Source: Verrucomicrobiota bacterium
GTDB taxonomy: Bacteria; Verrucomicrobiota; Verrucomicrobiia; Verrucomicrobiales; Akkermansiaceae
Length of the DNA stretch: 43,845 nucleotides
NCBI GenBank assembly: GCA_030835305.1
Contig: JAURPJ010000001.1
Span: 1-43,845, forward strand
Reading direction: 5' to 3'
Positions 1,130 to 43,456 of the stretch are shown one piece after another; within the stretch, counting starts at the first letter, position 1, and every line of letters begins with the position of its first letter. Under the pieces are notes generated by a model. That model saw nothing but the letters and a program-made list of their open reading frames with translations, ran no database searches and was not told the origin of the DNA. The position numbers and the translations under genes are program-made.

Positions 1130-4100
1130 TCAACGATAAATCCGGCTTTTAGAGTCACCGCCTGACATCAGATACCCCATGAGATCCTTGAGTTCACTTG
1201 GGTTGAGAGAATTGATTAATCCGGCCGGCATCTGGGAATTGCTGGTCTGCTTCACCGACTTTACCTGATCGACCGTGGTCAGGAATGGCTCGCCGGAATG
1301 ACCTGCGGGATAGATTGAAACGTCTTTTCCATTTCGAACATACAGCCCCTGCTTTTGGGTCCCATCCGCCAACAAAATATCGAACATGCTGTATTGATCG
1401 GAGACATCCTTGTTAGGGTTAACGATGGCCTCAAGAACGTAGCTGGTATCAAACTTGTTGGGAATGCTGCTCAGATCAGGGCCGATGTCCCCCCCCAGCC
1501 CGCCAAGCCGATGACAAGCACCGCAACTGACTGAGAAATACAAGCTGCGGCCATTCTGAAAACTTGCTCCTTTAAGGGACTTCACATGCTTCCCCGCCGA
1601 CTCGAGCGTGTATTGCCGACCGGGCCCCTGCGGAGGCTTGATCTCAAAGTCCGGGACCGGGTTAAAACTCTCTCCGGAAATATCAGCCAAAGCCGAACGA
1701 TGCTCGTTGCTCATCTGCGACAAATGCAGGTCTCGAATGTTGGCGAGGAATCCCGGGAAGCTTGCCCCTCCTGAGCCTTTTCCGGCTTCGTTCAGCAATT
1801 CAATGCAGGCTTTGCGCTGCTCCAAAGTCCAGCCGTTCTGAACATTCGAAAGCATCAAGACATAATAGACTTCGCGCGAGGGAGGCGGATTGTCGAGAAA
1901 GCCCTTGATGGACGCACCGTAACTTGGATTCCGCGCTGCGATGGCGGCCCAATCCGGAACGATTGTTTCTGGGCGATTCTTGATCAAAGCAATCGTCTTG
2001 GAGACGACCTCGGGAGACTGCAGGTAAGTCAAAACACGAATCAGTTCAGTGTTTAAATCGGCGTTGTCCGCAGGCAGCTCGCGCTCAAGAACATTCAAGA
2101 TCATCTCGCGTTGTATTTCTGACGGACGATCCATGCGAATAAAGGTCAGCGACAGGGCACGAAGGAATCCCAGCTTCTGAGACAGTGGGAGGCCGGCAAA
2201 AGGGATCCTCCCCAAAGTATTGGAGACAAGAGATTGTTGTTCGGCAGACCCGCTTCGAGCAAGCGCCACACAGGCCGTGATCATGGTTTGGTGGGAACTC
2301 ACTCCATTAAGCCTTTCGATCCAGGTTTCGACCGGCTGCGACTCGACTGCCACCCTTGCAGCATGACGGAGAAATCGATCTTCCGACCCCAGATAGGGCC
2401 AGGCCATCTCGACGGCAGATGAATCCACCACTCCATGAAAATTTTCCAACTGCCGCGCCAACTGCCGCGCCTTGGTCGGATTCAGAGCCGGAGCGGGCTT
2501 TGTTGATTCCTTGCCGGTGTAACGCACACGATACATCGCAGACTGGGTTCCCCGCCCTCCCACTAAAAAGTAAAGATGACCGTCCTTACCCACCGCGGCA
2601 TCAGTGAGAGGAAGGGCAGACCGGGAGAGAAAATTCTCACGGGTGCCAACATATCCGGCCCCTTCTTGCTTGAGGTGAATCGCCCAAATCGTTCCGAAAG
2701 TCCAATCGAAGGCATAGAGAGCCCGCTGATATTTGACCGGAAATTTGGTTCCCGTTCCCGAAAGCAAACCCGTCGGAGATCCAGGTCCGATCTCAACCAC
2801 CGGAGGAAGGCTATCCTCGTAATAATTGGGCCACTTACCGGTGCCCGAGCGCCAACCGTAGTCGGAACCGCTGACCGAAAAATTAATTCGAGTGGGACGA
2901 TACCAATGACTGCCGACATCCCATTCCATATCAGCATCGTAGATAAAAAGATCGGCGGCGGAATTCAGTGCGATATCATAGGCGTTACGCATTCCGATAC
3001 TGTGAAGGTCGTGCGTCTTGTTTTGGGGATCATACCGGCTGATCCAACCTCCCGGAGCAAGGCGCCCGCGTGCGTGCCCCCGGGCGTCCCAGAGTCGGGG
3101 TAAAAGATGATCCTCACTCCAAGATTGAACCCGCTTTCGAGTGAGCGAATCTAGGGGAGGAATGGGGGCGTGGTTTCCACCCACCACATAGAGTTGTTTG
3201 CTAGACTCGTCCGGAATCACCGCGTGATTTCCGTGCTCGCCACCTCCGTTGTTCGAGGGCTGTTTTTCGGCCTGATCCGGCAGGCCGTCGCCATTTGAAT
3301 CAATCACCCGGTAGAGCGCCCCACCGTTACGGTGAAACCAGAGGCTTCCTTGAAACCAGGTTAGCCCCTGGGCTCCGGACAAAATTTGGTCAGAACCAGC
3401 TTCGGTGACTCTCAATGGAGTAACCACTGTACCATCGTTACCAACGAGGATTCGAAAAAGTCCCTTCCCACCTTGGTCGGTGGCGTAAAAACTTCCATCC
3501 GGAGCAACGCAAAGGGAAACCCATGAGCCCTGCTCGCCCTTGGGAACGGTGTAAAGGAGCTCGGCCTCGAATCCCTCTGCAATTTGAAATTCATCAGGCT
3601 CGGCCGCCTTGCCCGGGGCCTTCTCACCCGGAATCCCCCACGGTTGCACTCCAAGCTTTCCAAGCGTTTTCAATTTGGCGTTCCAATCCGAATCATCGAA
3701 CCCCGGCTTTTCCCAACCATCCGCGGCCTCCAGCGATAACTTCCAATCCTCACCCGAGACAACCTCCCAATTCTTCCCGTCCGCCATTTCAACCTTCAGT
3801 TTAAACACGAAGGCCGCGACCCCGCCTTTGTTTTGCGCCTTTACCGCAATTTGGTTGCGGCCCTTTTTCAAGAGCGACTTCGCCTTGGCGACCGACAGTG
3901 GTTGCTGCCAATCCGGCACCTTACCGATCGCCTTGCCATTGACCCACACGGTCGCCCTGTTGTCGCAGGTCGTGTAAAGCGAGGCCGATTTCACATCGCC
4001 GGTAATCTCAAACTGATGACGCAAATAGATCGGCTCATCATTTGTCTTGTCAGCCCGCCAAACCCATTGGGCGACACTGGATTTCGAGGGCTTGGCTTGG

Positions 4101-4171
4101 GTCGTTTGAAATGACCCGAAAACGGAACAAATCGCAAAGGCGAACAGGACGGGCTTGCGTGCAAATTTCAT
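1130..4171 (-). CDS. PVC-type haem-binding protein: beta-propeller, HEAT-like region and C-terminal cytochrome c domain
   Basis: This 1013-residue exported protein starts with a signal peptide (residues 1 to about 26, ending TTQA). An N-terminal beta-rich region (about 30-180) resembles the carbohydrate-binding-like module often placed before such proteins. Residues about 195-555 look like a sorbosone/glucose-dehydrogenase type beta-propeller with blade motifs such as GLTWFQGSLWF and DSNGDGLPD. Residues about 565-830 are helical and HEAT-like. The C-terminus is a cytochrome c domain with CGACH at 883-887 and a candidate distal Met near 981 (SQMPAG). This architecture is characteristic of the PVC superphylum and is usually read as a periplasmic dehydrogenase or electron carrier of unknown substrate. 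No quinone-binding residues can be confirmed by eye. An 83-bp gap separates it from the upstream aminotransferase gene, so co-transcription is possible. Confidence 0.9.
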   Translation of the reverse strand: MKFARKPVLFAFAICSVFGSFQTTQAKPSKSSVAQWVWRADKTNDEPIYLRHQFEITGDVKSASLYTTCDNRATVWVNGKAIGKVPDWQQPLSVAKAKSLLKKGRNQIAVKAQNKGGVAAFVFKLKVEMADGKNWEVVSGEDWKLSLEAADGWEKPGFDDSDWNAKLKTLGKLGVQPWGIPGEKAPGKAAEPDEFQIAEGFEAELLYTVPKGEQGSWVSLCVAPDGSFYATDQGGKGLFRILVGNDGTVVTPLRVTEAGSDQILSGAQGLTWFQGSLWFHRNGGALYRVIDSNGDGLPDQAEKQPSNNGGGEHGNHAVIPDESSKQLYVVGGNHAPIPPLDSLTRKRVQSWSEDHLLPRLWDARGHARGRLAPGGWISRYDPQNKTHDLHSIGMRNAYDIALNSAADLFIYDADMEWDVGSHWYRPTRINFSVSGSDYGWRSGTGKWPNYYEDSLPPVVEIGPGSPTGLLSGTGTKFPVKYQRALYAFDWTFGTIWAIHLKQEGAGYVGTRENFLSRSALPLTDAAVGKDGHLYFLVGGRGTQSAMYRVRYTGKESTKPAPALNPTKARQLARQLENFHGVVDSSAVEMAWPYLGSEDRFLRHAARVAVESQPVETWIERLNGVSSHQTMITACVALARSGSAEQQSLVSNTLGRIPFAGLPLSQKLGFLRALSLTFIRMDRPSEIQREMILNVLERELPADNADLNTELIRVLTYLQSPEVVSKTIALIKNRPETIVPDWAAIAARNPSYGASIKGFLDNPPPSREVYYVLMLSNVQNGWTLEQRKACIELLNEAGKGSGGASFPGFLANIRDLHLSQMSNEHRSALADISGESFNPVPDFEIKPPQGPGRQYTLESAGKHVKSLKGASFQNGRSLYFSVSCGACHRLGGLGGDIGPDLSSIPNKFDTSYVLEAIVNPNKDVSDQYSMFDILLADGTQKQGLYVRNGKDVSIYPAGHSGEPFLTTVDQVKSVKQTSNSQMPAGLINSLNPSELKDLMGYLMSGGDSKSRIYR

Positions 4172-19397: not shown

Positions 19398-22094
<2,697 letters not shown>

Positions 22095-22519
22095 CGCGCG
22101 GGATGAGTAGCCGACTCCCTCCCCCCAAGCAAGCACTACGGAGCCCGGACTTTGGTCCGAGCGCCCTCTACCCCGCCTGCTCCAATCCAACATCTGGAAA
22201 TCGCCCTTCTCATTTCTGCTCAAAATGGCATCTTAAACACATCGTGCGAAGCTTCCGTGCCCTCCTCTCCGCCTTCCCTCTCCCCGACCAAACTCCCACC
22301 TCGATCTCAGTAGGAATCATTTTCGGCCAAGACAATCTCTGGTCCGCCAACCAAGGGTTCGGCCTCCAATTATAAGGACCACGCCCTGCTACGGATCAAA
22401 GCTACACCCGGACAAGCTTTCGCGGTTCTCCCGGAAATTCCGCCAAACCCCAACTTTCCCAAATTCCGTAGTTGGCTCCCTTGCCCCGAAAATTCTAAGA
22501 TTTCTCCACACAATCTAAA
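22095..22519. other. Intergenic region between valS and pyc (divergent promoters expected)
   Basis: These 425 bp carry no convincing gene; the open frames here lack conserved features. Small inverted repeats are visible. CGGAC-TTTG-GTCCG at 22146-22159 lies in the presumed valS leader. CGGAA-A-TTCCG lies at about 22433-22443. CCAACT...AGTTGG (22450-22455 / 22470-22475) is about 45 bp before the pyc start. None matches a riboswitch that I recognise. Confidence 0.4.
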
Positions 22520-29168: not shown

Positions 29169-29236
29169 GAAAAAAGGCTTAAGGACCGGCGGCAAACAAT
29201 TGTCTGAAACAAGGTATTTTCAAGGAAACAGATGGC

Positions 29237-29369
29237 GGACCGACCAACGGCTCGGTCCCACCAGTTGCTTTTCCTGTTCACCCCACTGCACTTGCGCAAG
29301 ATCCCACTGCCTGAGGGTTCAAATCAGATCCCCATCCCGCGATCAGAGACACCTGCACTTGCGGGATGG
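29237..29369 (+). promoter_or_regulatory. Structured leader upstream of sufS (two perfect hairpins, a palindrome and a direct repeat)
   Basis: The stretch before the sufS start holds four elements. GGACCGA-8nt-TCGGTCC lies at 29237-29258. The 10-bp palindrome CTTGCGCAAG is at 29291-29300. CCATCCCGC-20nt-GCGGGATGG spans 29332-29369. The 11-nt direct repeat CTGCACTTGCG occurs at 29286 and 29353. This density of dyads is unlike other spacers in the window. It could be an attenuator, protein operator or RNA element. It does not match an IscR box or a riboswitch that I know. Confidence 0.45.
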
Positions 29370-29393
29370 CCCTCGCGGGATTACAGACAGACT

Positions 29394-30617
29394 GTGAGCG
29401 CGTTCGACCCCTATCAGATTCGGTCTGACTTCCCCATCCTCAACCAAGAGATCAACGGGAAGCCCCTCGTCTATCTCGACAACGCTGCGACCTCCCAAAC
29501 GCCGCTCTGCGTCCTCGATTCCTCCCGAAACTACTACGAAAGGATCAATTCAAACATCCACCGCGGCGTTCACAGGCTCTCGCAGGCCGCCACGGCCGCG
29601 CACGAAGCCGCGCGGGAAACCATCGCGAAGCACCTCAATGCCTCACGCCCCGAAGAGATCATCTTCACCTCCGGCACCACCGATTCCATCAACCTAGTCG
29701 CTTCAGCTCTGGGACGATCCGACCTCCTCAAGTCCGGAGACGAAATCATCATCTCCGGTTTGGAGCACCATTCCAACACTGTTCCCTGGCAAATGCTTTG
29801 TGAACGACTGGGAATAACTCTGAAGATCATTCCAGTCCTAGATGACGGCACGCTTGACCTTGAGGCCTACGACAAACTTCTCTCGGAGAAAACCAAGCTG
29901 GTTTCTGTAAACCACGTCTCAAACGCATTCGGCACTGTGAACAACGTTATTCACATTTGTTCCCAAGCGAAGAAGTTTGGCGCCCTCACATTCATCGACG
30001 GCGCCCAATCAATTCCTCATTTCTCTATTGATTTACAGTCTTTTGATTGTGATTTTTATGCTTTTTCAGGACACAAGGTTTATGGACCAACCGGGACCGG
30101 AATCCTCTTCGGAAAACACGATCTGCTCTGTGAATTACCACCCTCGCGAGGTGGTGGCGAGATGATCAAGGAGGTGACTTTCGAGAAAACCACCTACAAC
30201 GATCCTCCGTTCAAGTTCGAAGCCGGGACTCCAAATATCGATGGCGGTATCGCTCTGGCAGCCGCTTTCGACTATGTGAATAACTTGGGCATAACCAATA
30301 TCGCGGATCATGAGACTCTCCTCATCCGGCGCGCGGCAGAGATTCTTGAGGATCTCGATGGCATCACTCTCTACGGACCGGATGACCGCGCGGGGGCCCT
30401 TTCATTCAACTTCGAGGGGATCCATCACTACGATCTCGGCACTCTGCTTGATCAGATGGGCTTCGCCCTCCGCACCGGACACCACTGCTGCCAACCACTC
30501 ATGGCCCGTTTTGGTATGACGGGCACCCTCCGCGCTTCTTTCGCTGCCTACAACACACTGGAAGAGGTCGGGTCTCTCGGCGAATCCCTCAAGAAAGCCC
30601 TCATGATGCTGCGTTGA
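29394..30617 (+). CDS. sufS: Cysteine desulfurase, SufS type (group II)
   Basis: From the GTG at 29394 (VSAFDPYQIRSDFPILNQ) the enzyme has 407 residues, close to E. coli SufS (406). A longer frame from 29232 lacks family similarity and covers the repeat-rich leader. The PLP Lys is K228 in FYAFSGHKVYGPTGTGILFG. The sulfur-acceptor Cys is C365 in RTGHHCCQPLM, in the short group II loop; the next residue is also Cys where Ala is common. It removes sulfur from cysteine as persulfide for Fe-S assembly and passes it to SufE, encoded 40 bp downstream. The scaffold genes sufBCD are not in the window. Confidence 0.95.
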   Translation: MSAFDPYQIRSDFPILNQEINGKPLVYLDNAATSQTPLCVLDSSRNYYERINSNIHRGVHRLSQAATAAHEAARETIAKHLNASRPEEIIFTSGTTDSINLVASALGRSDLLKSGDEIIISGLEHHSNTVPWQMLCERLGITLKIIPVLDDGTLDLEAYDKLLSEKTKLVSVNHVSNAFGTVNNVIHICSQAKKFGALTFIDGAQSIPHFSIDLQSFDCDFYAFSGHKVYGPTGTGILFGKHDLLCELPPSRGGGEMIKEVTFEKTTYNDPPFKFEAGTPNIDGGIALAAAFDYVNNLGITNIADHETLLIRRAAEILEDLDGITLYGPDDRAGALSFNFEGIHHYDLGTLLDQMGFALRTGHHCCQPLMARFGMTGTLRASFAAYNTLEEVGSLGESLKKALMMLR

Positions 30618-32116: not shown

Positions 32117-34222
32117 ATGAAACAATCTCTCTTCGCCCTACTCCTCCTCATGTTCCCGCTCCGGGCATCGGAGCGACCCAACGTTCTTCTCATCCTTGCC
32201 GACGATCTGGGATTCTCGGATCTCTCCTGCTATGGAGGAGAAATCCCCACCCCCAACCTCGACCGACTCGCCAACGGAGGAGCCAAGTTCTCTTCCTTCT
32301 ACACCAGCGCCCGCTGCTGTCCATCCCGCGCTTCTCTGATGACCGGGATTCACCCGCACCAAGCCGGCATCGGCTCCTTCACCCACGCGAAGCAACCTCC
32401 CGGTAAAGGGCTCGCTTATAAAGGAACTCTCCTCCCCTCCTGCGCCACCCTGGCTGAAATACTTCTCGATGAAGGCTACTCCACCTGGATGGTCGGCAAG
32501 TGGCACATGGCGCAACCCGGCCCCATCGGCCGAGGCTTCCAAAACTACTACGGCTACAAAAACTTCCTTGCCCACTCCGAGGATCAATGGACCCCCTCCA
32601 ATTATGTGCGCCTCCCCGAATCGACAAAACCTGAACTCCCTGTAAAAAACGACTTCTACGTCACCGACGTCTTCACCGATTACTCCCTTGAATTCCTCAA
32701 GCAGGCCCGCGCCCAAAAGGACAAACCATGGTTCCTCTACCTCGCCCACTCCTCGCCTCACTTTCCAATTCAAGCTCCCAAGGAATCCATCGACCGCCAT
32801 GTGGAAACCTACCGCAAAGGCTGGGACGTCCTCCGCGCCGGACGCTTCGAACGTCAAAAGAAACTGGGGCTCGTCCGTCCCGATTCTACGCTCCCTCCAC
32901 TGTCGGAAGTGCCCGTTGATCGCGACGACATCGCCAATGGCTTTTCGGGAAAAAAGAACCCCAAGTGGAACGACCTTCCCGCCGATCGACGAGAAGATCT
33001 GGCCCGCCGCATGGCCACCTTTGCAGCCATGGTTGAACATATTGATCAAGGCATCGGACGAATCATCGACGACCTTGAGGAAAACGGTGAACTCGACAAC
33101 ACCATCATCGCCTTTTTATCCGATAACGGCGCTTGTTACGAATGGGGCCCGTTTGGATTCGACGGGCGTTCGCGCCTTGGCAAAACCACCCTCCACTCCG
33201 GCGAACAACTTGCCGACATCGGCCAATCGGGCACACACTCATCCTACGGTTCCGGGTGGGCCAACCTCGGAAACACTCCGCTGAGTATGTACAAGCATTT
33301 CTGCCACGAAGGCGGAATTGCGTCTCCTCTCATCCTCCACTGGCCCAAAGGAATCGCCAAAAAGGAAGGCTACGTCAAAACACCCTCTCACCTCGTGGAC
33401 ATCGTCCCCACCATCCTTAACGCCACTGGAGCAAAATATCCCTCGGAACGAAACGGACACAAAATCACTCCCGTGGAAGGAACCGCTCTTCTCCCTGCAA
33501 TCGAAAATCCCAGGGCAATTCCCGAACGCGTCCTCGCCTTTGAGCATCAGGAAGCCCGTGGTCTTCGCAAAGGAGACTGGAAGTTGGTTTGGGGAAAACG
33601 TCAGCCCGACAAAATCACATGGGAACTTTACAACCTGGCCGAGGACCGCTCCGAGCAAACAAACGTCGCTCAGAACTACGCCACCATCAAAGACCAGCTC
33701 GTAGAGGACTGGAACACCTGGGCCAAGCGCGTTCATGCTTCACCGCATCTCATGCCCGAACCTGGCTACGTAAAGAAGTCACCCGGACCAAAATCACCAC
33801 AGATCGCAAACCGACCCATCACCATTACCGCAACCGTGGAAGGCCACGACCTCAACGGAGTCGTCCTCGCACAAGGAGGCAAAGAACACGGCTATTCTCT
33901 GCACTTCATCAACGGGATCTCTTCGATTGATGTTCGAATCAACGGCGAGGTTACCCGGCTCAGCGCTGATAACAAAATCAGCGGAAAGATCGATCTCAAG
34001 GCAAGCCTAACAGCAAGCAAGCTCACCCTAACCGCCATGGGCAGGACCTTCGAAACAAAATCACCCGGCTTAATTCCCGTTCAACCAAAAGACAATCTTT
34101 CAATCGGTCGCGATGAACGAACCCCCGCTGGAAACTACGAGATCCCAAACCCTTTCAACGGGAAGATCCTTGGATACAACATTCTCAATAACCAAACACC
34201 TCCAACCCGAACGGCAAAGTAA
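32117..34222 (+). CDS. Secreted arylsulfatase with C-terminal beta-domain
   Basis: The 701-residue protein has a signal peptide (MKQSLFALLLLMFPLRA). It has an S1-type sulfatase domain: metal-binding ILADDLG (D29, D30) and the formylglycine motif C67-C-P-S-R-A-S-L-M-T-G, where C67 would be converted to formylglycine. MVGKWHM and the later FLSDNGA metal site are also present. After about residue 555 there is an extra beta-rich domain of about 140 residues (ITITATVEGHDLNG ...), possibly a binding or LamG-like module. It hydrolyses sulfate esters, presumably on algal or other polysaccharides. No maturase (FGE or anSME) gene is in the window. The gene is convergent with the propeller gene, 31 bp away. 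Confidence 0.94.
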   Translation: MKQSLFALLLLMFPLRASERPNVLLILADDLGFSDLSCYGGEIPTPNLDRLANGGAKFSSFYTSARCCPSRASLMTGIHPHQAGIGSFTHAKQPPGKGLAYKGTLLPSCATLAEILLDEGYSTWMVGKWHMAQPGPIGRGFQNYYGYKNFLAHSEDQWTPSNYVRLPESTKPELPVKNDFYVTDVFTDYSLEFLKQARAQKDKPWFLYLAHSSPHFPIQAPKESIDRHVETYRKGWDVLRAGRFERQKKLGLVRPDSTLPPLSEVPVDRDDIANGFSGKKNPKWNDLPADRREDLARRMATFAAMVEHIDQGIGRIIDDLEENGELDNTIIAFLSDNGACYEWGPFGFDGRSRLGKTTLHSGEQLADIGQSGTHSSYGSGWANLGNTPLSMYKHFCHEGGIASPLILHWPKGIAKKEGYVKTPSHLVDIVPTILNATGAKYPSERNGHKITPVEGTALLPAIENPRAIPERVLAFEHQEARGLRKGDWKLVWGKRQPDKITWELYNLAEDRSEQTNVAQNYATIKDQLVEDWNTWAKRVHASPHLMPEPGYVKKSPGPKSPQIANRPITITATVEGHDLNGVVLAQGGKEHGYSLHFINGISSIDVRINGEVTRLSADNKISGKIDLKASLTASKLTLTAMGRTFETKSPGLIPVQPKDNLSIGRDERTPAGNYEIPNPFNGKILGYNILNNQTPPTRTAK

Positions 34223-34253: not shown

Positions 34254-36185
34254 CTACCGTTTTGGCTCAATCACCTGCAAATGGTCGATATTTCCGCCAC
34301 TCGCCCCATTGGTTTCCAAAACGACTAAGTTATCGCCCTTCCTGAAAGCAACGGAAGCGGTCAAATCTTTCCAACGACTCCACCCTCCTGTCTCGGGAAA
34401 CGGGAGAATCGAGTGCTCCTCACCATTCACAATCAGCTTGAGAGGCCGGGCATTTGAACCCATTGCATAGCGAACAAGGATCTTACCGGATCCAGATTTA
34501 GCGGACTTCACGGTCCACTCAATCGATTCTTTCCCGGTCCCAAAGTCAGCGTAGCAAGTCCCGGTGTAACCGTCATGCTCGGTCGAGGTCCGGACTCCTT
34601 TTAACTTTGCCTCTGTCACTTGATAAACGGCCCCAACAGGATCAACCACCTTGGCCGGCTTTCCCGCGGCTTTCTTCCTGGGTTCCGCAGCTCCGCTGAC
34701 GTGAAGGGGATCGGGGGGAGTGTTTTCGAGAAGCCGGTTCAGGGTATAGGCGATGTAGGAATTTGCCAGCGGGGTTCCGTCGGCAGATTTCATATTTTGA
34801 ACCCTCACCTCATGAATGTGCCAGGCCTTCAGCTCCTCAAGATTTACCTCGACCGTCTTTCCATCATTCGAGATCACTATCGAATCAACCTTTACCGGAG
34901 TGACATCCATCTGCGGCGATCCATAAGATTTGTGATACTTGTAATAGTAGCGCTTGAAGGGCCAATTGGCGACCTCCGCCGCGATTTTGGAATCCACAGG
35001 CTTGGTGAAAGTAAAACGGAAACCTGTCTTCGTGAGCTTCATCGAAACGGCTTCGAAAGGATCTTCGCCATTCCACTCAACTCTCGAAATTCCTTCACCT
35101 CCGGCCCAGCTGTGCTTGGTATGACCTACGTAAAGACTACCATCCGGTGCCCAGGCCATGCGATTGCAACCACGAGGAAGAGAACCACCGTCTATAAACG
35201 GAACGCAAGCCCCTTGAAGCTCCCCGCCAATTTCCTCCAGTATGACCCGAACGATTCGATTCGTGTTCATCTCGCCAACCAGAAGCTGTCCGGTGAACGG
35301 CCCAAAATTCGCTTCCGGGGAAATCGCAAGAACCTGGGTTGGCGAGTTGGCCATCGAGCCGTGAGGAAATACCACCGCGGCACGGGTCCGCATCTTGGCG
35401 AGTTCCGCAGGATTGGTCTCTACCGGTGTGCCTTCAAAACCCGGCTTCCAGGTCAGACTTGCGGCATGACCGTAGAAGCGTCCTTCCTTGACGTGGAACA
35501 ACTTGCTCGAACCAACCCAATCGCCCTGATTGTCGGTCACGAAAAGATTCCCCTCCAGATCAAATCCAAGTCCGTTTGGAGTACGATGCCCGTAAGACCA
35601 GGGGATCGTTTTCCCGTCTTTTGTCAGCTTCATGACACAACCACGATAAGGAGTGGACGCGTGCATTCGTCCCGGTCTTCCCCTGGGGTCAAACCGACCC
35701 CGCACGATTGAGCGAATTCCGTCTCCGGAAGAACCAGTCCCCAAGGAGAAGAAGTAGTTACCTTCCTTATCCCTGACCGGAGTAAAGTGAAACTCGTGAT
35801 AGTTTCCCGACATTCCAAACTCATCCGTCATCACCTGATAAAGATCCGCTTTTCCATCGCCATCGGTATCGCTCACACGAGTGACCTCGGGACGCTGGGA
35901 AATGACCAGTGACGTGTTGGATTCCGCGATCACTCCGAGAGGATTGTGCAATCCTTCCGCAAAAAGCTGCCAATCTGCAGTCTTTGAGTTATACAAAAAA
36001 ACCTCACCACTTGGCAGACAGACCACCATTCGACCGTCCGGAAGAAAATCAAGACCATCAATTTGTTTGGTTCCAAACTTGGAGGGAGGATTGGGGATCC
36101 CGGTCACGTCATAACTTGGCGAAGTGCCGCCAAATGCGAGCTTTGCGGCCAGCGAGAAAGAGAGGATGTTGCTGAACTTTTTCAT
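34254..36185 (-). CDS. Exported beta-propeller protein (PQQ-sugar-dehydrogenase-like) with C-terminal beta-domain
   Basis: The 643-residue protein has a signal peptide (KFSNILSFSLAAKLAFG). Residues about 30-380 form a sorbosone/PQQ-dehydrogenase-like propeller: IDGLDFLPDGRMVVCLPSGE, VSDTDGDGKADLY, HRTPNGLGFDLEGNLFVTDN. About 385-500 is an Ig-like or linker region. The last 110 residues are a beta-sandwich resembling a carbohydrate-binding module (TGTCYADFGTGKESIEW, VNGEEHSILPFPETGG). The start overlaps the stop of the upstream cytochrome gene as ATGA (36182-36185), so the two are made together and probably form an oxidoreductase plus electron acceptor. The substrate is unknown. Confidence 0.85.
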   Translation of the reverse strand: MKKFSNILSFSLAAKLAFGGTSPSYDVTGIPNPPSKFGTKQIDGLDFLPDGRMVVCLPSGEVFLYNSKTADWQLFAEGLHNPLGVIAESNTSLVISQRPEVTRVSDTDGDGKADLYQVMTDEFGMSGNYHEFHFTPVRDKEGNYFFSLGTGSSGDGIRSIVRGRFDPRGRPGRMHASTPYRGCVMKLTKDGKTIPWSYGHRTPNGLGFDLEGNLFVTDNQGDWVGSSKLFHVKEGRFYGHAASLTWKPGFEGTPVETNPAELAKMRTRAAVVFPHGSMANSPTQVLAISPEANFGPFTGQLLVGEMNTNRIVRVILEEIGGELQGACVPFIDGGSLPRGCNRMAWAPDGSLYVGHTKHSWAGGEGISRVEWNGEDPFEAVSMKLTKTGFRFTFTKPVDSKIAAEVANWPFKRYYYKYHKSYGSPQMDVTPVKVDSIVISNDGKTVEVNLEELKAWHIHEVRVQNMKSADGTPLANSYIAYTLNRLLENTPPDPLHVSGAAEPRKKAAGKPAKVVDPVGAVYQVTEAKLKGVRTSTEHDGYTGTCYADFGTGKESIEWTVKSAKSGSGKILVRYAMGSNARPLKLIVNGEEHSILPFPETGGWSRWKDLTASVAFRKGDNLVVLETNGASGGNIDHLQVIEPKR

Positions 36186-37354
36186 TTCTTTGGTGCTTCG
36201 GTTGGAATGGTGACAGGAGAAGCCGGATTCTTCTCGCTGATGGTGATCTGAAACTTCATCGCTTGTTTCGCGGAGAGCTTCAGGGTGCCGTCTTTGGCGA
36301 TCGTTCCGGCCGAACTGGAATAGGTCGCGGCTTCGTCCGGGGTAAGCTTGAACGTAATGGGAACCTTGGGAGAGATTGCAAACTTTCGAGTGATTCCCAA
36401 ATTTCCCTGTGATGCCTGGATCAACTCTCTGATCTCGTAATCGCCGACCTTGTAGATGAACTCCGGAAACCCCTGAATCAAACGATAGCCTCTGTATTTT
36501 GGCAATTCATCGACGCCTTCGATTTCAATCGGAAAATCCACTGCTTCCGTCGTGTCATACAACGGAGTTTTCCTTCCCGTGTCGGCGAGATGCTGATAAT
36601 CCTCCGGCTTAAGCTTGCTGGAACGGGCAAGATAGTAAGGGATTCCATTGAACTTTGCCACCGGCTTGCCATTGCTCGACCAGTGCACCTGGTTTCCCCG
36701 GATGAAACCACCTTTACTCCACGCGTAGCGCAAGCGACATTCCCCAGCATCCCAGCAGTAGTATTGGTTCCCTGGAAGGGCCACCGCAAAGGCCGCAGGC
36801 GAGGCCCCGGGCATAAAGGTCCGGTAAACGACCGGTTCCGCCACATCGGCCAAAAAATCATCAAAATCCGGGGTAAAGGTCCCGTTGTTTCTCCTCAGCT
36901 TCTTTTCAAAAGGGAAGGCCTTGAGAATGGCCTCAGGCGTGTAAACATCCGGCGGAAGATTTTCCCGGGCTTTTGAAACTTGGGCCGCTGTCACTGCCGC
37001 GCATTTGTTTCCCCACGCATTGTTCACGTAGGTGACGATATCCGCGATCTTTTCATCGTCGAAAAGAAGCTGGGGCGGCATGGCCGAGTAATAACGTTTT
37101 CCATTTACCTTAACTGGTCCAGCCATCCCGCGAAGAACGATTGCGATGGTGCGATCCGGATTATCCAACCAATCGCTGCCTGCCAATGGTGGTACAGACC
37201 CCGGTTGCCCCTTCCCATCAGCCATGTGACAAGCGATGCAGGATCCCGCGCCGTCATAAAGCTCCTTTCCTTTTGCCAGAGCAGCGGCATCCGGGGCCGA
37301 GTAAGCCATCCCGGCGACCAGAGATGAGAGAAGAATGGAAATGATTGCTTTCAT
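36182..37354 (-). CDS. Periplasmic c-type cytochrome with long C-terminal domain
   Basis: From the ATG at 37352-37354 (MKAIISILLSSLVAGMAYSA) the protein has 390 residues with a signal peptide. A longer frame from 37462 would place 36 non-signal residues ahead of it. The cytochrome c domain (about 22-115) has C39-I-A-C42-H43 and a likely distal Met at M92 (YSAMPPQ). The remaining 270 residues are beta-rich (GNQYYCWDAGECRLRYAW, YRGYRLIQGFPEFIYKVGDY) and occur with propeller partners in PVC genomes. It probably accepts electrons from the translationally coupled propeller protein. The 148-bp spacer to the divergent SGNH gene contains an inverted repeat. Confidence 0.88.
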   Translation of the reverse strand: MKAIISILLSSLVAGMAYSAPDAAALAKGKELYDGAGSCIACHMADGKGQPGSVPPLAGSDWLDNPDRTIAIVLRGMAGPVKVNGKRYYSAMPPQLLFDDEKIADIVTYVNNAWGNKCAAVTAAQVSKARENLPPDVYTPEAILKAFPFEKKLRRNNGTFTPDFDDFLADVAEPVVYRTFMPGASPAAFAVALPGNQYYCWDAGECRLRYAWSKGGFIRGNQVHWSSNGKPVAKFNGIPYYLARSSKLKPEDYQHLADTGRKTPLYDTTEAVDFPIEIEGVDELPKYRGYRLIQGFPEFIYKVGDYEIRELIQASQGNLGITRKFAISPKVPITFKLTPDEAATYSSSAGTIAKDGTLKLSAKQAMKFQITISEKNPASPVTIPTEAPKK

Positions 37355-37416
37355 ATCTGGGAAACTAGTTAACGCCGATTGGCAGTCTACCAAGTAAAAA
37401 GACCAACGATTGTCCC

Positions 37417-37435
37417 GCCCACAGATTCCGTGGGC
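37417..37435. repeat. Inverted repeat in the divergent cytochrome / SGNH promoter region
   Basis: GCCCAC-7nt-GTGGGC (37417-37422 / 37430-37435) is followed on the plus strand by seven A residues. No T-run follows the stem on either strand, so it is not an intrinsic terminator. It may be an operator between the two divergent genes. Confidence 0.35.
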
Positions 37436-37502
37436 AAAAAAATCATGGTGCAAATCAATCATCTTGGTTGAGCGACCTGGATCTGAACGTTAGAAAGCGA
37501 GA

Positions 37503-38237
37503 ATGTTCTTGCGCCGCAATCTTCTTCTATCCCTTTTCTCTCTTTACCTCGGAGTTTCGGCTTCCGCCGAACCCGCCGAAAAAATCCTGTTTATCGGGAA
37601 TAGCTACACAGGTGGCGTTCGTAAAATGGTGACCGAATTGGTGCAGCAATCCCCCCACGCCAACGCTCAGATTTCGTTTATCAATCCCGGCGGAAAAACA
37701 CTCGAGTTTCATCTTAAAAACAAGGCAACTGTTGAAAAAATCGAGACTGGCAAATTTGATATCGTTGTCTTGCAGGACCAGAGCCAATTTCCAGCAGTCT
37801 TCCCGGATCGCTTTCAAAAGGCCGCAGTGGCATTGCATAAAATTATCAAAAAATCAGGAGCCACAACCGTCTTCTACGAAACCTGGGGCAGACGGGATGG
37901 TGACAGATTGAACAAGAAACTCTTCCCGAATTTTGAATCCATGCAAAAGGCCCTCAGCAAGAGCTATCAATCGACGGCAAAAAAATGCTGGGCAAACCTA
38001 GCTCCGGTCGGTTCCACATGGAGCATCGTGAGAGAAAAGAATCCCAAACTGGGAAGGGAGCTCTACCGTGGAGACGGCAGTCATCCCTCGCCGAAAGGTT
38101 CCTACCTCGCGGCGTGCGTTTTTTACGCCACTCTTTTCGACAAAGACCCTCGCAAACTGAAATTCACGGGCGGTCTGCCGGAAGACGAAGCGAAACTCAT
38201 CAGAGAGGTGGCCTATTCTACCGTGACAAACGCGTGA
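37503..38237 (+). CDS. Secreted SGNH-type hydrolase-like protein
   Basis: The 244-residue protein has a signal peptide (MFLRRNLLLSLFSLYLGVSASA). It shows an SGNH fold: block I ILFIGNSYTGG with the candidate Ser, the VVLQDQSQF block, and C-terminal DGSHPSPKGSYLAA with Asp and His of the triad. Members cleave acyl esters, including acetyl groups on polysaccharides. The substrate is inferred only from the nearby sulfatases and oxidoreductases. The stop at 38235-38237 overlaps the 3' end of the convergent selenoprotein gene by 20 bp. Confidence 0.82.
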   Translation: MFLRRNLLLSLFSLYLGVSASAEPAEKILFIGNSYTGGVRKMVTELVQQSPHANAQISFINPGGKTLEFHLKNKATVEKIETGKFDIVVLQDQSQFPAVFPDRFQKAAVALHKIIKKSGATTVFYETWGRRDGDRLNKKLFPNFESMQKALSKSYQSTAKKCWANLAPVGSTWSIVREKNPKLGRELYRGDGSHPSPKGSYLAACVFYATLFDKDPRKLKFTGGLPEDEAKLIREVAYSTVTNA

Positions 38238-39156
38238 TATTCACCCGGAAAAGAAATGGACCGCCACTTGAGGCAGGAGCGACAAAAACGACCTCTTCGG
38301 TTCCTGAACCATCATAAGTCCCGGTCTTCCGGGAAAGAATAAACAGGTCACCCACGTTTTCCCAGTCCTCACCATTGCCGCTTCGCTGAATCTCATAATT
38401 CAAACCGCCCGCCTCTCCCAAACGCCGGCGAAATCTCAGCGAAAACAGATCATCATTTTCAATCGTTACGAATTCTGCAGCCAACCGGGCAAGGTCCTCC
38501 GGTGTATTCGGTTTTGACCCAAGGGCATACTCAAAAAAATTGCTCCCCTCATCAAGATCAGGATCATCAGCATCCCCACTCCCTAAACCTCCAAAAAACC
38601 GTTCCTCCCAATCATCACCTATTCCATCATCGTCCGAATCAACAAACCGGGCCGCATCGCGCAATCGCTTTTTCAGCAGTTCGCGTGTTGCCGCACTGGA
38701 AAGATCATTGGCAGTCAAATTGAAGGGGGGATCGATGGGACGATTTAAAGAATCCAGGATAACAACATCACGATAGGTCACACCCCAGAGACTTCGGACG
38801 TTCGCTTCAAGGGTATCTTGCAGCCAGGGAATGTTCCTATCTGCCGTCGTCAAACTGTTTCCGGCTTCATTGCTGAGGTTCCAGTTGATCCCCATAATCT
38901 CAATTGGATATCCTGTCGCCTCGGTTCGAAGCTCTGAATAGATTTGTTGCAAGAAGCCAAACTGACTTCGGCAGTATCCTCAGGTCGAATCGCCAAAATA
39001 ATAGGCGGTTACTTGATGGAGATAATCCCTGGGTGACACCAACTCTCGGGAACGCGAAGAGGTCTCGTTCTCATCAACCAAGCGAAAATCCGGAACTGGT
39101 TCCCCTGTCGCCAAAGACGCCAAGAGGCAAAAAACAGAAATCGTTCGACCTATCAT
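38218..39156 (-). CDS. Probable secreted selenoprotein: thioredoxin-like domain with UxxC, acidic repeat and beta-rich C-terminus
   Basis: Read conventionally there are two short frames: 39156 (or GTG 39174) to a TGA at 38982-38980, and a downstream frame to 38218. They are in the same frame with nothing else between. The product is 312 residues: signal peptide (MIGRTISVFCLLASLATG), then PVPDFRLVDEN and a thioredoxin-like core, AYYFGDST-U59-G-Y-C62-RSQFGFL, continuing IYSELRTEATGYPIEIMGIN. U59 takes the place of the first, nucleophilic Cys of CxxC. Next is an acidic repeat (DSDDDGIGDDWEERFFGG) and a beta-rich domain typical of exported verrucomicrobial proteins. A hairpin of bacterial-SECIS type follows the TGA. 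Alternatives are a nonsense mutation or a sequence error. The Sec machinery (selA, selB, selC, selD) is not in the window. Confidence 0.75.
38948..38982 (-). promoter_or_regulatory. Candidate bacterial SECIS element following the in-frame TGA
   Basis: Just 3' of the TGA (38982-38980) the mRNA can form TGC-(C)-GAAGTC-[AGTTT]-GGCTTC-(TT)-GCA (38973-38948). This is a 6-bp upper stem with one GU pair, a small internal bulge, a 3-bp lower stem and a 5-nt loop. The loop starts 16 nt after TGA and has G as its second base. From memory, the bacterial consensus asks for G among the first two loop bases and a spacing of roughly 16-37 nt. A competing hairpin, GCCGAA-[GTCAG]-TTTGGC, is also possible. Confidence 0.6.
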
Positions 39157-42016: not shown

Positions 42017-43456
42017 ATGAAATACATTCTCCTCATTCTTTCTCTCATCTCGGTCTCGTTCGCGGCCAAAAAGCCCAATTTTATTTTTGTTCTCAGCGAT
42101 GACATTGCCCAAGGTGACCTCGGTGTCTACGGGCAAGAGGTCATCAAAACTCCCAGGCTCGACCAAATCGCCAATGAAGGAACCCGCTACATGCAGGCCT
42201 ACTGTGGCACCAGTGTTTGCGCGCCCTGCCGTTCAGTTTTCTTCACCGGCCTCCATTCGGGACGCTGTCCGGTGAGAGGCAATCGCGAGATGGCACCGGA
42301 AGGCCAGTGGCCCATTCCAACAAATACCGTCACGATCGGCGAGGTAGCCAAAAACGCCGGTTATGCCACCTCTACTTTTGGCAAGTGGGGCATGGGTTTT
42401 TTCAACACCTCCGGCAGCCCCTTGAAGCAAGGAATCGATCGCTTCTTTGGCTACAACTGCCAACGCCATGCCCACTCTTATTTTCCTACCTACCTCTGGG
42501 ACAATGACCAGCCCATCGCCCTACCGGGGAATAAGGGAAAAGGTATTGGCAAAACTTACGCGCAAGAATTAATCCAGAACGAAGCTATCAAATGGGTGAA
42601 ACAAAATGCCAAGAATCCCTTCATGATGTTTTACGCGATCACCCTGCCCCACGGAGCACACGAAATTGATGACCTTGGAATCTACAAAAACAAGCCTTGG
42701 TCCAAACTGCAAAAATCCTATGCGGCCCAAGTCACCCGCATTGATTCGGACATGGGAGAACTGGTCGACACCCTCCGGGAACTTGGCATCGAGAAAGATA
42801 CCCTCATCATTTTCACCGGTGACAATGGATCGTCATTCAACCCGCAATCGGAGATCGGCAAGCTCTTCAAACAGAATGCCAACGGTCTCCGCGGATACAA
42901 GCGAGGCATGTATGAAGGAGCCTTGAGACAAGCCGCCTTTGCCTGGTGGCCGGGAACAGTGCCCGCCGGACGGGTCGATCAATCGCCCTGGGCACTCTGG
43001 GATCTCATGCCGACCTTTGTTGAAATGACCGGGATCACCCCGCCCGAAGGATACCAAACCGACGGACACTCGCTCCTCTCCTATCTCAGAGGAGGCAACG
43101 CCCCAAACCGGGACTACTTTTATTGGGAACTCCATAAAGGAACTGTCGCGCAAGCCGCCCGATGGGGTGACTGGAAAGCGGTCCGGAACGGAATCAAAAA
43201 ACCGATTGAAATTTACAATCTAGCCCAGGATTCCGGCGAAAAGAATAACCTCGCGGGAAGAAGACCGGAATTGGTGAAACGAGCTGCAAGGATTTTCGAG
43301 GAAGCTCACCAAGTCGACCCGGAATGGCCCTTGGCCGGACCGACTCAGAGGCAAATAGACGAGGCCAAAAAAGCGTGGGAAATCAAGCGAAAGCGGGACA
43401 AGGAAGGCTATGTCCCGGAAGGCGCCACTCCACTTTCCAAAACACCGGTGAAGTAA
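42017..43456 (+). CDS. Secreted sulfatase
   Basis: The 479-residue S1-family sulfatase has a signal peptide ([17 protein letters not shown]). Metal-binding D28-D29 lie in [11 protein letters not shown]. The formylglycine motif is C68[10 protein letters not shown]. It keeps the CxPxR core, but the usual Ser is C71. The GKWGMG segment and [20 protein letters not shown] place it in a sulfatase subgroup that has GKWG rather than [13 protein letters not shown] is the second metal site. It is presumably periplasmic and acts on sulfated glycans. It lies 10 bp downstream of ligA, an unusual partner, so it may have its own promoter within ligA. Confidence 0.94.

What the first reader, a model, noticed from the sequence alone, without database searches (positions are those of the whole stretch)
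38218..39156. Secreted selenoprotein with a UxxC thioredoxin-like motif
A single in-frame TGA (38982-38980, minus) splits an otherwise continuous 312-codon frame. It falls exactly where the first Cys of a thioredoxin CxxC would be (AYYFGDST-U-GYC). Both halves are needed: the first carries the signal peptide and the strand before the motif, the second the rest of the fold, an acidic DSDDDG repeat and a beta-rich domain. A SECIS-like hairpin follows at the expected spacing. The combination of a secretion signal, a Sec redox centre and a calcium-type acidic repeat is not a selenoprotein family that I can name. Standard annotation would give two fragments and miss it.
Basis: partly seen in the sequence, partly recalled or inferred. 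Interest (0 to 1): 0.88.

Follow-up and report, generated by a model that had tools for sequence, protein, structure and literature searches.

The report
Thioredoxin-like selenoprotein with shared C-terminal tail
This bacterial gene very probably reads an internal stop codon as selenocysteine, making a redox protein of a family that a public database already names, with a tail shared by some two dozen mostly giant proteins of the same genome.

Summary
Window 38221-39156 (minus) is a 312-codon gene with one in-frame TGA at codon 59 (38982-38980), best read as selenocysteine. The genome has selA, selB, selC and selD; selD has its own in-frame TGA. Twenty-four distinct sequences (window included) keep TGA at this codon, followed 10 nt later by a covarying stem (score 0.668; shuffles 0.196, 0 of 500 as high; 17 of 24 form all six pairs). 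The one full-length Cys form (CPTC) has lost the stem, and its genome (86% complete) gave no selA, selB or selC hit.

The family is not new: 21 of 21 members scanned match NCBIfam NF053656 'TUGYCR motif thioredoxin fold (seleno)protein'. No paper was found under that name or motif. The fold is TlpA/ResA-like, but the family has Arg-Asp where distant relatives have the Pro of the cis-Pro site.

New here: the C-terminal part is a module with 61 matches in the same genome. Twenty-six reach its end; all 17 of these examined (this gene and 16 others, mostly 1,300-2,100 residues long) stop within 3 residues of the stop codon. Most likely: an exported Sec-dependent thiol-disulfide oxidoreductase or peroxidase. 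Export, activity and the module's role are inferred.

The parts
38218..39156 (-). Selenoprotein gene, 312 codons plus TAG stop; TGA at codon 59 read as Sec
   Evidence: only one in-frame stop; 96%-identical relative with the same TGA.
38980..38982 (-). In-frame TGA (Sec59), aligned with the first Cys of CxxC
   Evidence: 24 of 24 TGA-form sequences carry TGA here; CPTC in the one Cys form; first Cys of CxxC in 29 of 29 distant redoxins that the profile reported, of 31 loci given.
38971..38982 (-). UxxC redox motif (U59-G-Y-C62)
   Evidence: Positions 59 (U, or C in one row) and 62 invariant in all 21 aligned members.
38953..38969 (-). bSECIS hairpin: six pairs, AGUUU loop, 16 nt between TGA and loop
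   Evidence: 91.7% of 144 cells paired, 5 of 6 pairs with double changes, covariation 0.668 vs 0.196 shuffled; RNAalifold finds the same stem.
39103..39156 (-). Putative signal peptide (residues 1-18)
   Evidence: Hydropathy up to 2.6 over 9 residues; no signal-peptide predictor was available; inferred.
38653..39096 (-). Thioredoxin-fold domain, NCBIfam NF053656 redoxin_TUGYCR (residues 21-168)
   Evidence: AlphaFold2 model whose best solved matches are ResA and DsbE-like, Z 17.2.
38230..38655 (-). C-terminal module: TSP3-like acidic motif followed by a six-stranded beta domain
   Evidence: 61 matches in the own genome, this one included; 17 of 17 examined matches that reach the module's end (of 26 such) stop within 3 residues of the stop codon; model pLDDT 86.5.

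Best explanation
The gene is a bacterial selenoprotein of the NCBIfam family redoxin_TUGYCR. During translation SelB and tRNA-Sec read UGA-59 as selenocysteine, directed by the hairpin just downstream. The N-terminal signal probably exports the protein. The thioredoxin-fold domain then works as a two-centre redox enzyme: Sec59 attacks an oxidised substrate (a disulfide, or a peroxide) and Cys62 resolves the selenyl intermediate. The C-terminal module, shared with many very large proteins of the same cell, probably places it in the same outer compartment. Shown here: the family, the reading frame, the covarying SECIS stem, the Sec genes, the UxxC position and the shared C-terminal module. Inferred: that Sec is actually inserted, export, the substrate, and what the C-terminal module does.
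For: Own genome: selC 52.9 bits (gathering 47) and ARAGORN tRNA-SeC with anticodon tca; selB 317.7 bits; selA 488.8; selD 385.6 with its own in-frame TGA. TGA conserved in 24 distinct sequences. SECIS covariation: 40 cells with double changes against 14.5 shuffled; slid controls at most 8. In 386 genomes of the order, 18 of 19 with the TGA form have selA, against 99 of the 367 others (Fisher p 2.5e-9, relatedness not corrected). The exception, G158 (77% complete), has selB, so all 19 have at least one of selA, selB, selC. The Cys-form genome G138 (86% complete) had none of the three at those thresholds, and its hairpin is gone (2 of 6 pairs). NF053656 matches 21 of 21. Fold. C-terminal module.
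Against: No protein evidence of Sec. In the common register 17 of 24 hairpins form six pairs, four form five, one four and two three; one of 24 misses the -7.5 kcal/mol limit. The loop AGUU lies in the codons of the invariant Gln-Phe, and the Cys form keeps it, so its conservation alone proves nothing. No selB hit at E <= 1e-60 in three TGA genomes (G146, G546, G623) and no tRNA-Sec hit at E <= 1e-7 in seven of the 19. The tRNA-Sec model is not strictly specific: it rang over its cut-off in 5 of 14 control genomes, where selB did so in 2; outside G000 the anticodon was not checked. The family lacks the usual cis-Pro, so a plain TlpA-type reductase is not assured. No conserved neighbour gene points to a partner.
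Confidence: 0.88

Rival explanations
1. Same selenoprotein, but its job is a peroxidase (peroxiredoxin- or GPx-like) and not a disulfide reductase: R129 stands at the cis-Pro site and activates a peroxide, as the catalytic Arg of peroxiredoxins does (recalled).
For: R129 is nearly invariant. Nine of 29 distant redoxins were printed at this site, and all nine have a Pro there: six directly under R129, three as a residue inserted just after it. PF00578 AhpC-TSA is the commonest Pfam hit, 15 of 21 members. Peroxiredoxins appear in the structural list at Z about 15.
Against: ResA and DsbE-like proteins score higher (Z 17.2). UxxC with a resolving Cys at +3 is the reductase-type motif. PF00578 also covers TlpA-type proteins (recalled), and the window protein is below its cut-off (14.9 against 26). 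No coordinates were at hand to see whether R129 faces Sec59.
Confidence: 0.35
2. Pseudogene, sequencing error or two separate genes: the TGA is a real stop, and the downstream 244-codon frame from TTG 38952 is its own gene or a relic.
For: A mechanical ORF with TTG start exists at 38952. Long open frames after a TGA occur elsewhere in the window (13 of 1552).
Against: The same TGA occurs in 24 sequences. dN/dS is 0.157 after the TGA. A Cys form spans both halves. The hairpin covaries, and the Sec genes are present.
Confidence: 0.02
3. TGA is read as another amino acid (for example Trp), or by general read-through.
For: TGA is the only in-frame stop.
Against: The replacing residue in the homologue is Cys; the position aligns with the first Cys of CxxC; a covarying SECIS stem follows; selA/B/C/D are present, and selD too has one in-frame TGA.
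Confidence: 0.02

Closest known systems
NCBIfam NF053656 redoxin_TUGYCR ('TUGYCR motif thioredoxin fold (seleno)protein')
   Same: Whole thioredoxin domain, 175.6 bits over a cut-off of 100; motif T-U-G-Y-C-R identical in the window.
   Different: The model covers only the 146-position domain; its name says nothing of a C-terminal module or a function.
Published UxxC redoxin selenoproteins ('Redoxin family protein' and 'Prx-like thiol:disulfide oxidoreductase' in the tables of PMC13188914 and PMC9312934, passages only)
   Same: UxxC motif in a redoxin or AhpC-TSA domain, as listed there.
   Different: Not compared: their sequences were not at hand, so a closer relation to NF053656 is neither shown nor excluded.
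TlpA/ResA/DsbE exported thiol-disulfide oxidoreductases
   Same: Fold (ResA and DsbE-like, Z 17.2, rmsd 2.1-2.3 over 133-137 residues); UxxC in place of CxxC; N-terminal export-like signal.
   Different: Sec for the first Cys; Arg-Asp at the site where nine of nine printed relatives have Pro; extra C-terminal module.
Peroxiredoxins (AhpC/TSA)
   Same: AhpC-TSA is the best Pfam match in the set (up to 1.9e-7); an Arg at the YRD site resembles the catalytic Arg (recalled).
   Different: The window protein is below the Pfam cut-off; redox pair three residues apart.
C-terminal ends of giant lamin-tail/CotH proteins of the same genome
   Same: Same module, ending at the stop codon.
   Different: No thioredoxin-type Pfam match at E <= 1e-5 in the C-terminal stretches of the ten carriers scanned; 15 of the 16 other carriers examined lie in frames of 1,317-2,109 codons.

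Membership tests
NCBIfam NF053656 redoxin_TUGYCR | Whole-protein score over the curated cut-off of 100 bits | tested here: met
   175.6 bits, residues 21-168, profile 1-146 of 146.
Bacterial selenoprotein | In-frame TGA conserved in relatives, Cys in homologues | tested here: met
   TGA in 24 sequences; Cys in the single full-length non-TGA homologue.
Bacterial selenoprotein | Sec genes (selA, selB, selC, selD) in the genome | tested here: met
   All four over their cut-offs in G000.
Bacterial selenoprotein | bSECIS within published limits | tested here: met
   Loop 5 nt with G at position 2, stem 6 bp, 16 nt from TGA, -10.3 kcal/mol.
Bacterial selenoprotein | Sec shown in the protein | not testable with these tools
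   Needs mass spectrometry or 75Se.
TlpA/ResA-type thiol-disulfide oxidoreductase | Thioredoxin fold with redox pair at CxxC | tested here: met
   Model pLDDT 88.1, pTM 0.85; ResA Z 17.2; UxxC aligned with CxxC.
TlpA/ResA-type thiol-disulfide oxidoreductase | cis-Pro facing the active site | tested here: not met
   No Pro at residues 128-130 in the 20 of 21 aligned members that reach there; nine of nine printed distant redoxins have Pro at the site, six under R129 and three inserted just after it; for 20 of 29 the site was not printed. By alignment, not coordinates. Not filed as a member.
Peroxiredoxin | Pfam AhpC-TSA over the gathering score | tested here: not met
   14.9 bits against 26 for the window protein. 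Not filed as a member.
Bacterial TSP3 repeat (PF18884) | Match over the Pfam gathering score | tested here: inconclusive
   No match in the window protein; E <= 0.1 in 3 of 21 members.
Type IX secretion C-terminal domain | SprA-type translocon in the genome | tested here: inconclusive
   No hit, but no control genome rang either.

The most novel reading that the evidence does not exclude
The C-terminal module is a sorting or anchoring domain that sends some two dozen mostly giant proteins to the outer surface of this bacterium, and the selenoprotein has acquired it, making it a surface-displayed bacterial selenoenzyme, perhaps a peroxidase using Sec59, Cys62 and R129.
Probability: 0.3. Interest if true: 0.65.

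Novelty: new member of a known kind. Interest (0 to 1): 0.47.

Why it matters
It turns a database name for which no paper was found into a testable protein, with a covarying SECIS, a natural Cys form in a genome where selA, selB and selC were not found, and a defined redox pair. Selenocysteine is costly and easily oxidised (general knowledge), so its use in a probably exported protein is worth explaining. The shared C-terminal module offers a handle on how these bacteria sort their many giant proteins.

Tried and rejected
Pseudogene, two-gene and alternative-code readings were rejected (see rivals). Operon partner: all-against-all comparison of frames of at least 100 codons within 9 kb in 20 loci (the window and the 19 loci, many with short flanks) gave, apart from the gene itself, one cluster in three loci, whose window member is a sulfatase; clusters in fewer than three loci were not listed. 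Phage or plasmid link: no relative in viral contigs; no DNA match of the part after the TGA among plasmids. Solved relatives by sequence: nothing below 0.1 for the single protein or at E <= 0.01 for the whole-length profile; weak hits to thioredoxin and tryparedoxin chains for the thioredoxin domain (best 0.0028). The C-terminal module alone gave no Foldseek match at E <= 0.001 and no Z of 8 or more; the best, Z 6.6, were cytokine-receptor and then Ig-like domains, which may mean only a common arrangement. By sequence it gave only weak hits (0.024 to Vip4 over 17 residues; Binary_toxB calcium domain in 2 of 18, best 0.0052), which I read as the shared acidic calcium-type motif and nothing more. 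Amuc_1099 (NF042425) hits in 6 of 18 module sequences were not followed. SprA was inconclusive. An NF053656 search of 387 genomes drawn from the phylum gave only this genome over the cut-off, so the order was searched. One search read minus-strand matches on the wrong strand and was redone. For L025 no start codon was found in the range tried, so I cut it by hand. One search used a wrong offset and was replaced.

Literature (listings unless said): 'TUGYCR' 0 papers; 'NF053656', 'TUGYC', 'UGYCR', 'UGYCQ' together 1 paper, on springtail taxonomy; wider searches on selenoproteins and on the C-terminal module. Of PMC13188914 and PMC9312934 I saw passages only; 'NF0536' does not occur in the main text of the former. 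The library holds open-licence papers only.

Full report
What is there. The minus-strand frame 39156-38221 encodes 312 codons, with one in-frame stop, TGA at codon 59, and ends in TAG. The reported coordinates and motif are exact.

Where it comes from. The window is one whole contig (C47, 43845 bases) of a 4.45-Mb, 133-contig genome, 96.9% complete. The 19 named relatives are all metagenome assemblies with Verrucomicrobia-type titles. The placement in or near Akkermansiaceae is inferred from that.

It is a selenoprotein by sequence. The genome has selC (ARAGORN tRNA-SeC with anticodon tca; alignment), selB, selA and selD, and selD itself has an in-frame TGA. Homologues from 192 relatives, 386 genomes of the order (the sets overlap) and the species collection give 24 distinct TGA-form sequences including the window: 20 and four more; one genome, G576, has two. 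All 24 carry TGA at the same codon. I left out of this count G138, which has Cys (CPTC), the distant relative L097 (G009), which has a TGA in another motif, and the distant redoxin L096 (G105), which has CMPC.

The hairpin. On the 24 sequences the stem at columns 14-19/25-30 pairs in 91.7% of 144 cells. Five of six pairs show changes on both sides, with 40 doubly changed cells against 14.5 in shuffles; the covariation score is 0.668 against 0.196 +/- 0.039, and none of 500 shuffles reaches it. One measure is not exceptional: the number of pairs with a double change (5) is reached by 116 of 500 shuffles. Sliding the partner by 1-3 columns gives a score of at most 0.141. RNAalifold, unprompted, predicts the same stem. 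Seventeen of 24 form all six pairs, four form five, one forms four and two form three; 23 of 24 fold at -7.5 kcal/mol or lower over 45 nt. The loop AGUU lies in the codons of the invariant Gln-Phe, so it is not independent evidence. The limits of the bacterial SECIS model come from a passage of PMC13188914, and the window meets them. In the Cys form the same register pairs in 2 of 6 positions.

Co-occurrence. In 386 genomes of the order, 117 have selA at E <= 1e-60. Of 19 genomes with the TGA form, 18 do; the exception, G158 (77% complete), has selB. Among the other 367, 99 do (Fisher p 2.5e-9; relatedness not corrected). In the 20 genomes checked further (19 TGA, one Cys), selB is found in 16 at E <= 1e-60 and tRNA-Sec in 12 at E <= 1e-7. 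The tRNA-Sec model also rang over its cut-off in 5 of 14 control genomes, so it is the weakest of the markers. The Cys-form genome G138 had no hit for all three, but is only 86% complete.

It is a named family. NCBIfam NF053656 matches at 175.6 bits and matches 21 of 21 aligned members. No paper was found with the name or motif terms searched (open-licence library). Published tables list other UxxC redoxin selenoproteins, which I could not compare. So this is a new member of a known kind.

What the thioredoxin part does. The model is confident (pLDDT 88.1, pTM 0.85). The nearest solved folds are ResA and DsbE-like exported thiol-disulfide oxidoreductases. Positions 59 and 62 are invariant, and so, among others, are F24, Y53, F54, Q65, F66 and W111. 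Of 31 loci of distant redoxins given to a profile of the domain, 29 were reported, and in all 29 the column of Sec59 holds the first Cys of a CxxC. For nine of the 29 my script also printed the next site, and all nine have a Pro there, six directly under R129 and three as a residue inserted just after it; for the other 20 the site was not printed. The family has no Pro at residues 128-130 in the 20 members that reach there; 19 of them have Arg at 129, and the Cys form has Leu. Loss of the cis-Pro is unusual for the fold (recalled), and an Arg there recalls peroxiredoxins (recalled). I therefore keep two mechanisms open: disulfide oxidoreductase, favoured, or peroxidase.

The C-terminal part. 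A profile of residues 168-312 has 61 matches in the own genome, this gene included, some of them several to a protein. Twenty-six reach profile position 139 or later. Thirty matches were held as loci; 17 of these (this gene and 16 others) are among the 26, and all 17 end within 3 residues of the stop codon. Of the other 13 held, eight end at profile positions 102-113 with 1-37 residues left to the stop, and five cover only the acidic motif, 184-505 residues or more before the end. Ten carriers were scanned for Pfam over the C-terminal stretch held: nine have lamin-tail domains (one of these, L126, below the cut-off), one of these also CotH. In other genomes, seven of nine distinct frames outside this family that match to the module's end are terminal within 10 residues; L037 and one frame of L110 continue by about 500 residues. 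The 23 family members not cut off by a contig end carry the module; 19 of them went into the profile used, so only the other four (L107, L108, L109, L115) are independent, and in L107 the frame runs off the contig. Predicted alone, the module gives two short helices and a six-stranded beta domain with only weak Ig/FnIII-like matches. Four Asp of the TSP3-like loop are nearly invariant, which suggests calcium binding; that is not shown. A sorting or anchoring role is the simplest reading of the fixed terminal position, but is inference.

Context. The gene stands alone: no conserved neighbour was found. Nearby genes are a DUF4886 protein, a cytochrome c protein, a GSDH/CBM6 protein, DNA ligase and sulfatases.

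Verdict. The selenoprotein call is about as firm as sequence can make it. The most interesting new point is the shared C-terminal module.

Noticed in passing
L097 1216-1875 (minus), genome G009, same genus: A 220-residue distant relative (NF053656 32.7 bits, below the cut-off of 100) with motif DCDC-U-GP, an in-frame TGA and a hairpin with AGUUA loop 22 nt after the TGA; the genome has selA. Possibly a separate selenoprotein family; no Pfam match at E <= 0.1.
   Followed up: partly
Own genome, L123-L151: The same C-terminal module ends many large proteins, often with lamin-tail domains and once CotH.
   Followed up: partly
L100: SelD of the same genome has an in-frame TGA (SCGG-U-ASK), so it is itself a likely selenoprotein.
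   Followed up: partly
window 20466 (plus): Another TGA with long open frames on both sides (251 codons before, 360 after), antisense to a valyl-tRNA synthetase gene (19398-22223, minus); probably a by-product of that gene's codon use.
   Followed up: no
window 32117-34222 and 42017-43456: Two sulfatase genes on the same contig; a GSDH/DUF7133/CBM6 gene (34254-36185) and a cytochrome c gene (36182-37462) lie between them.
   Followed up: no
window 29232-30617: Strong class-V aminotransferase (461 aa, 4.9e-141), the fold class of cysteine desulfurases and selenocysteine lyases (recalled), about 8 kb from the selenoprotein.
   Followed up: no
window 1130-4171: 1013-codon frame without any Pfam match at E <= 1e-8.
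   Followed up: no
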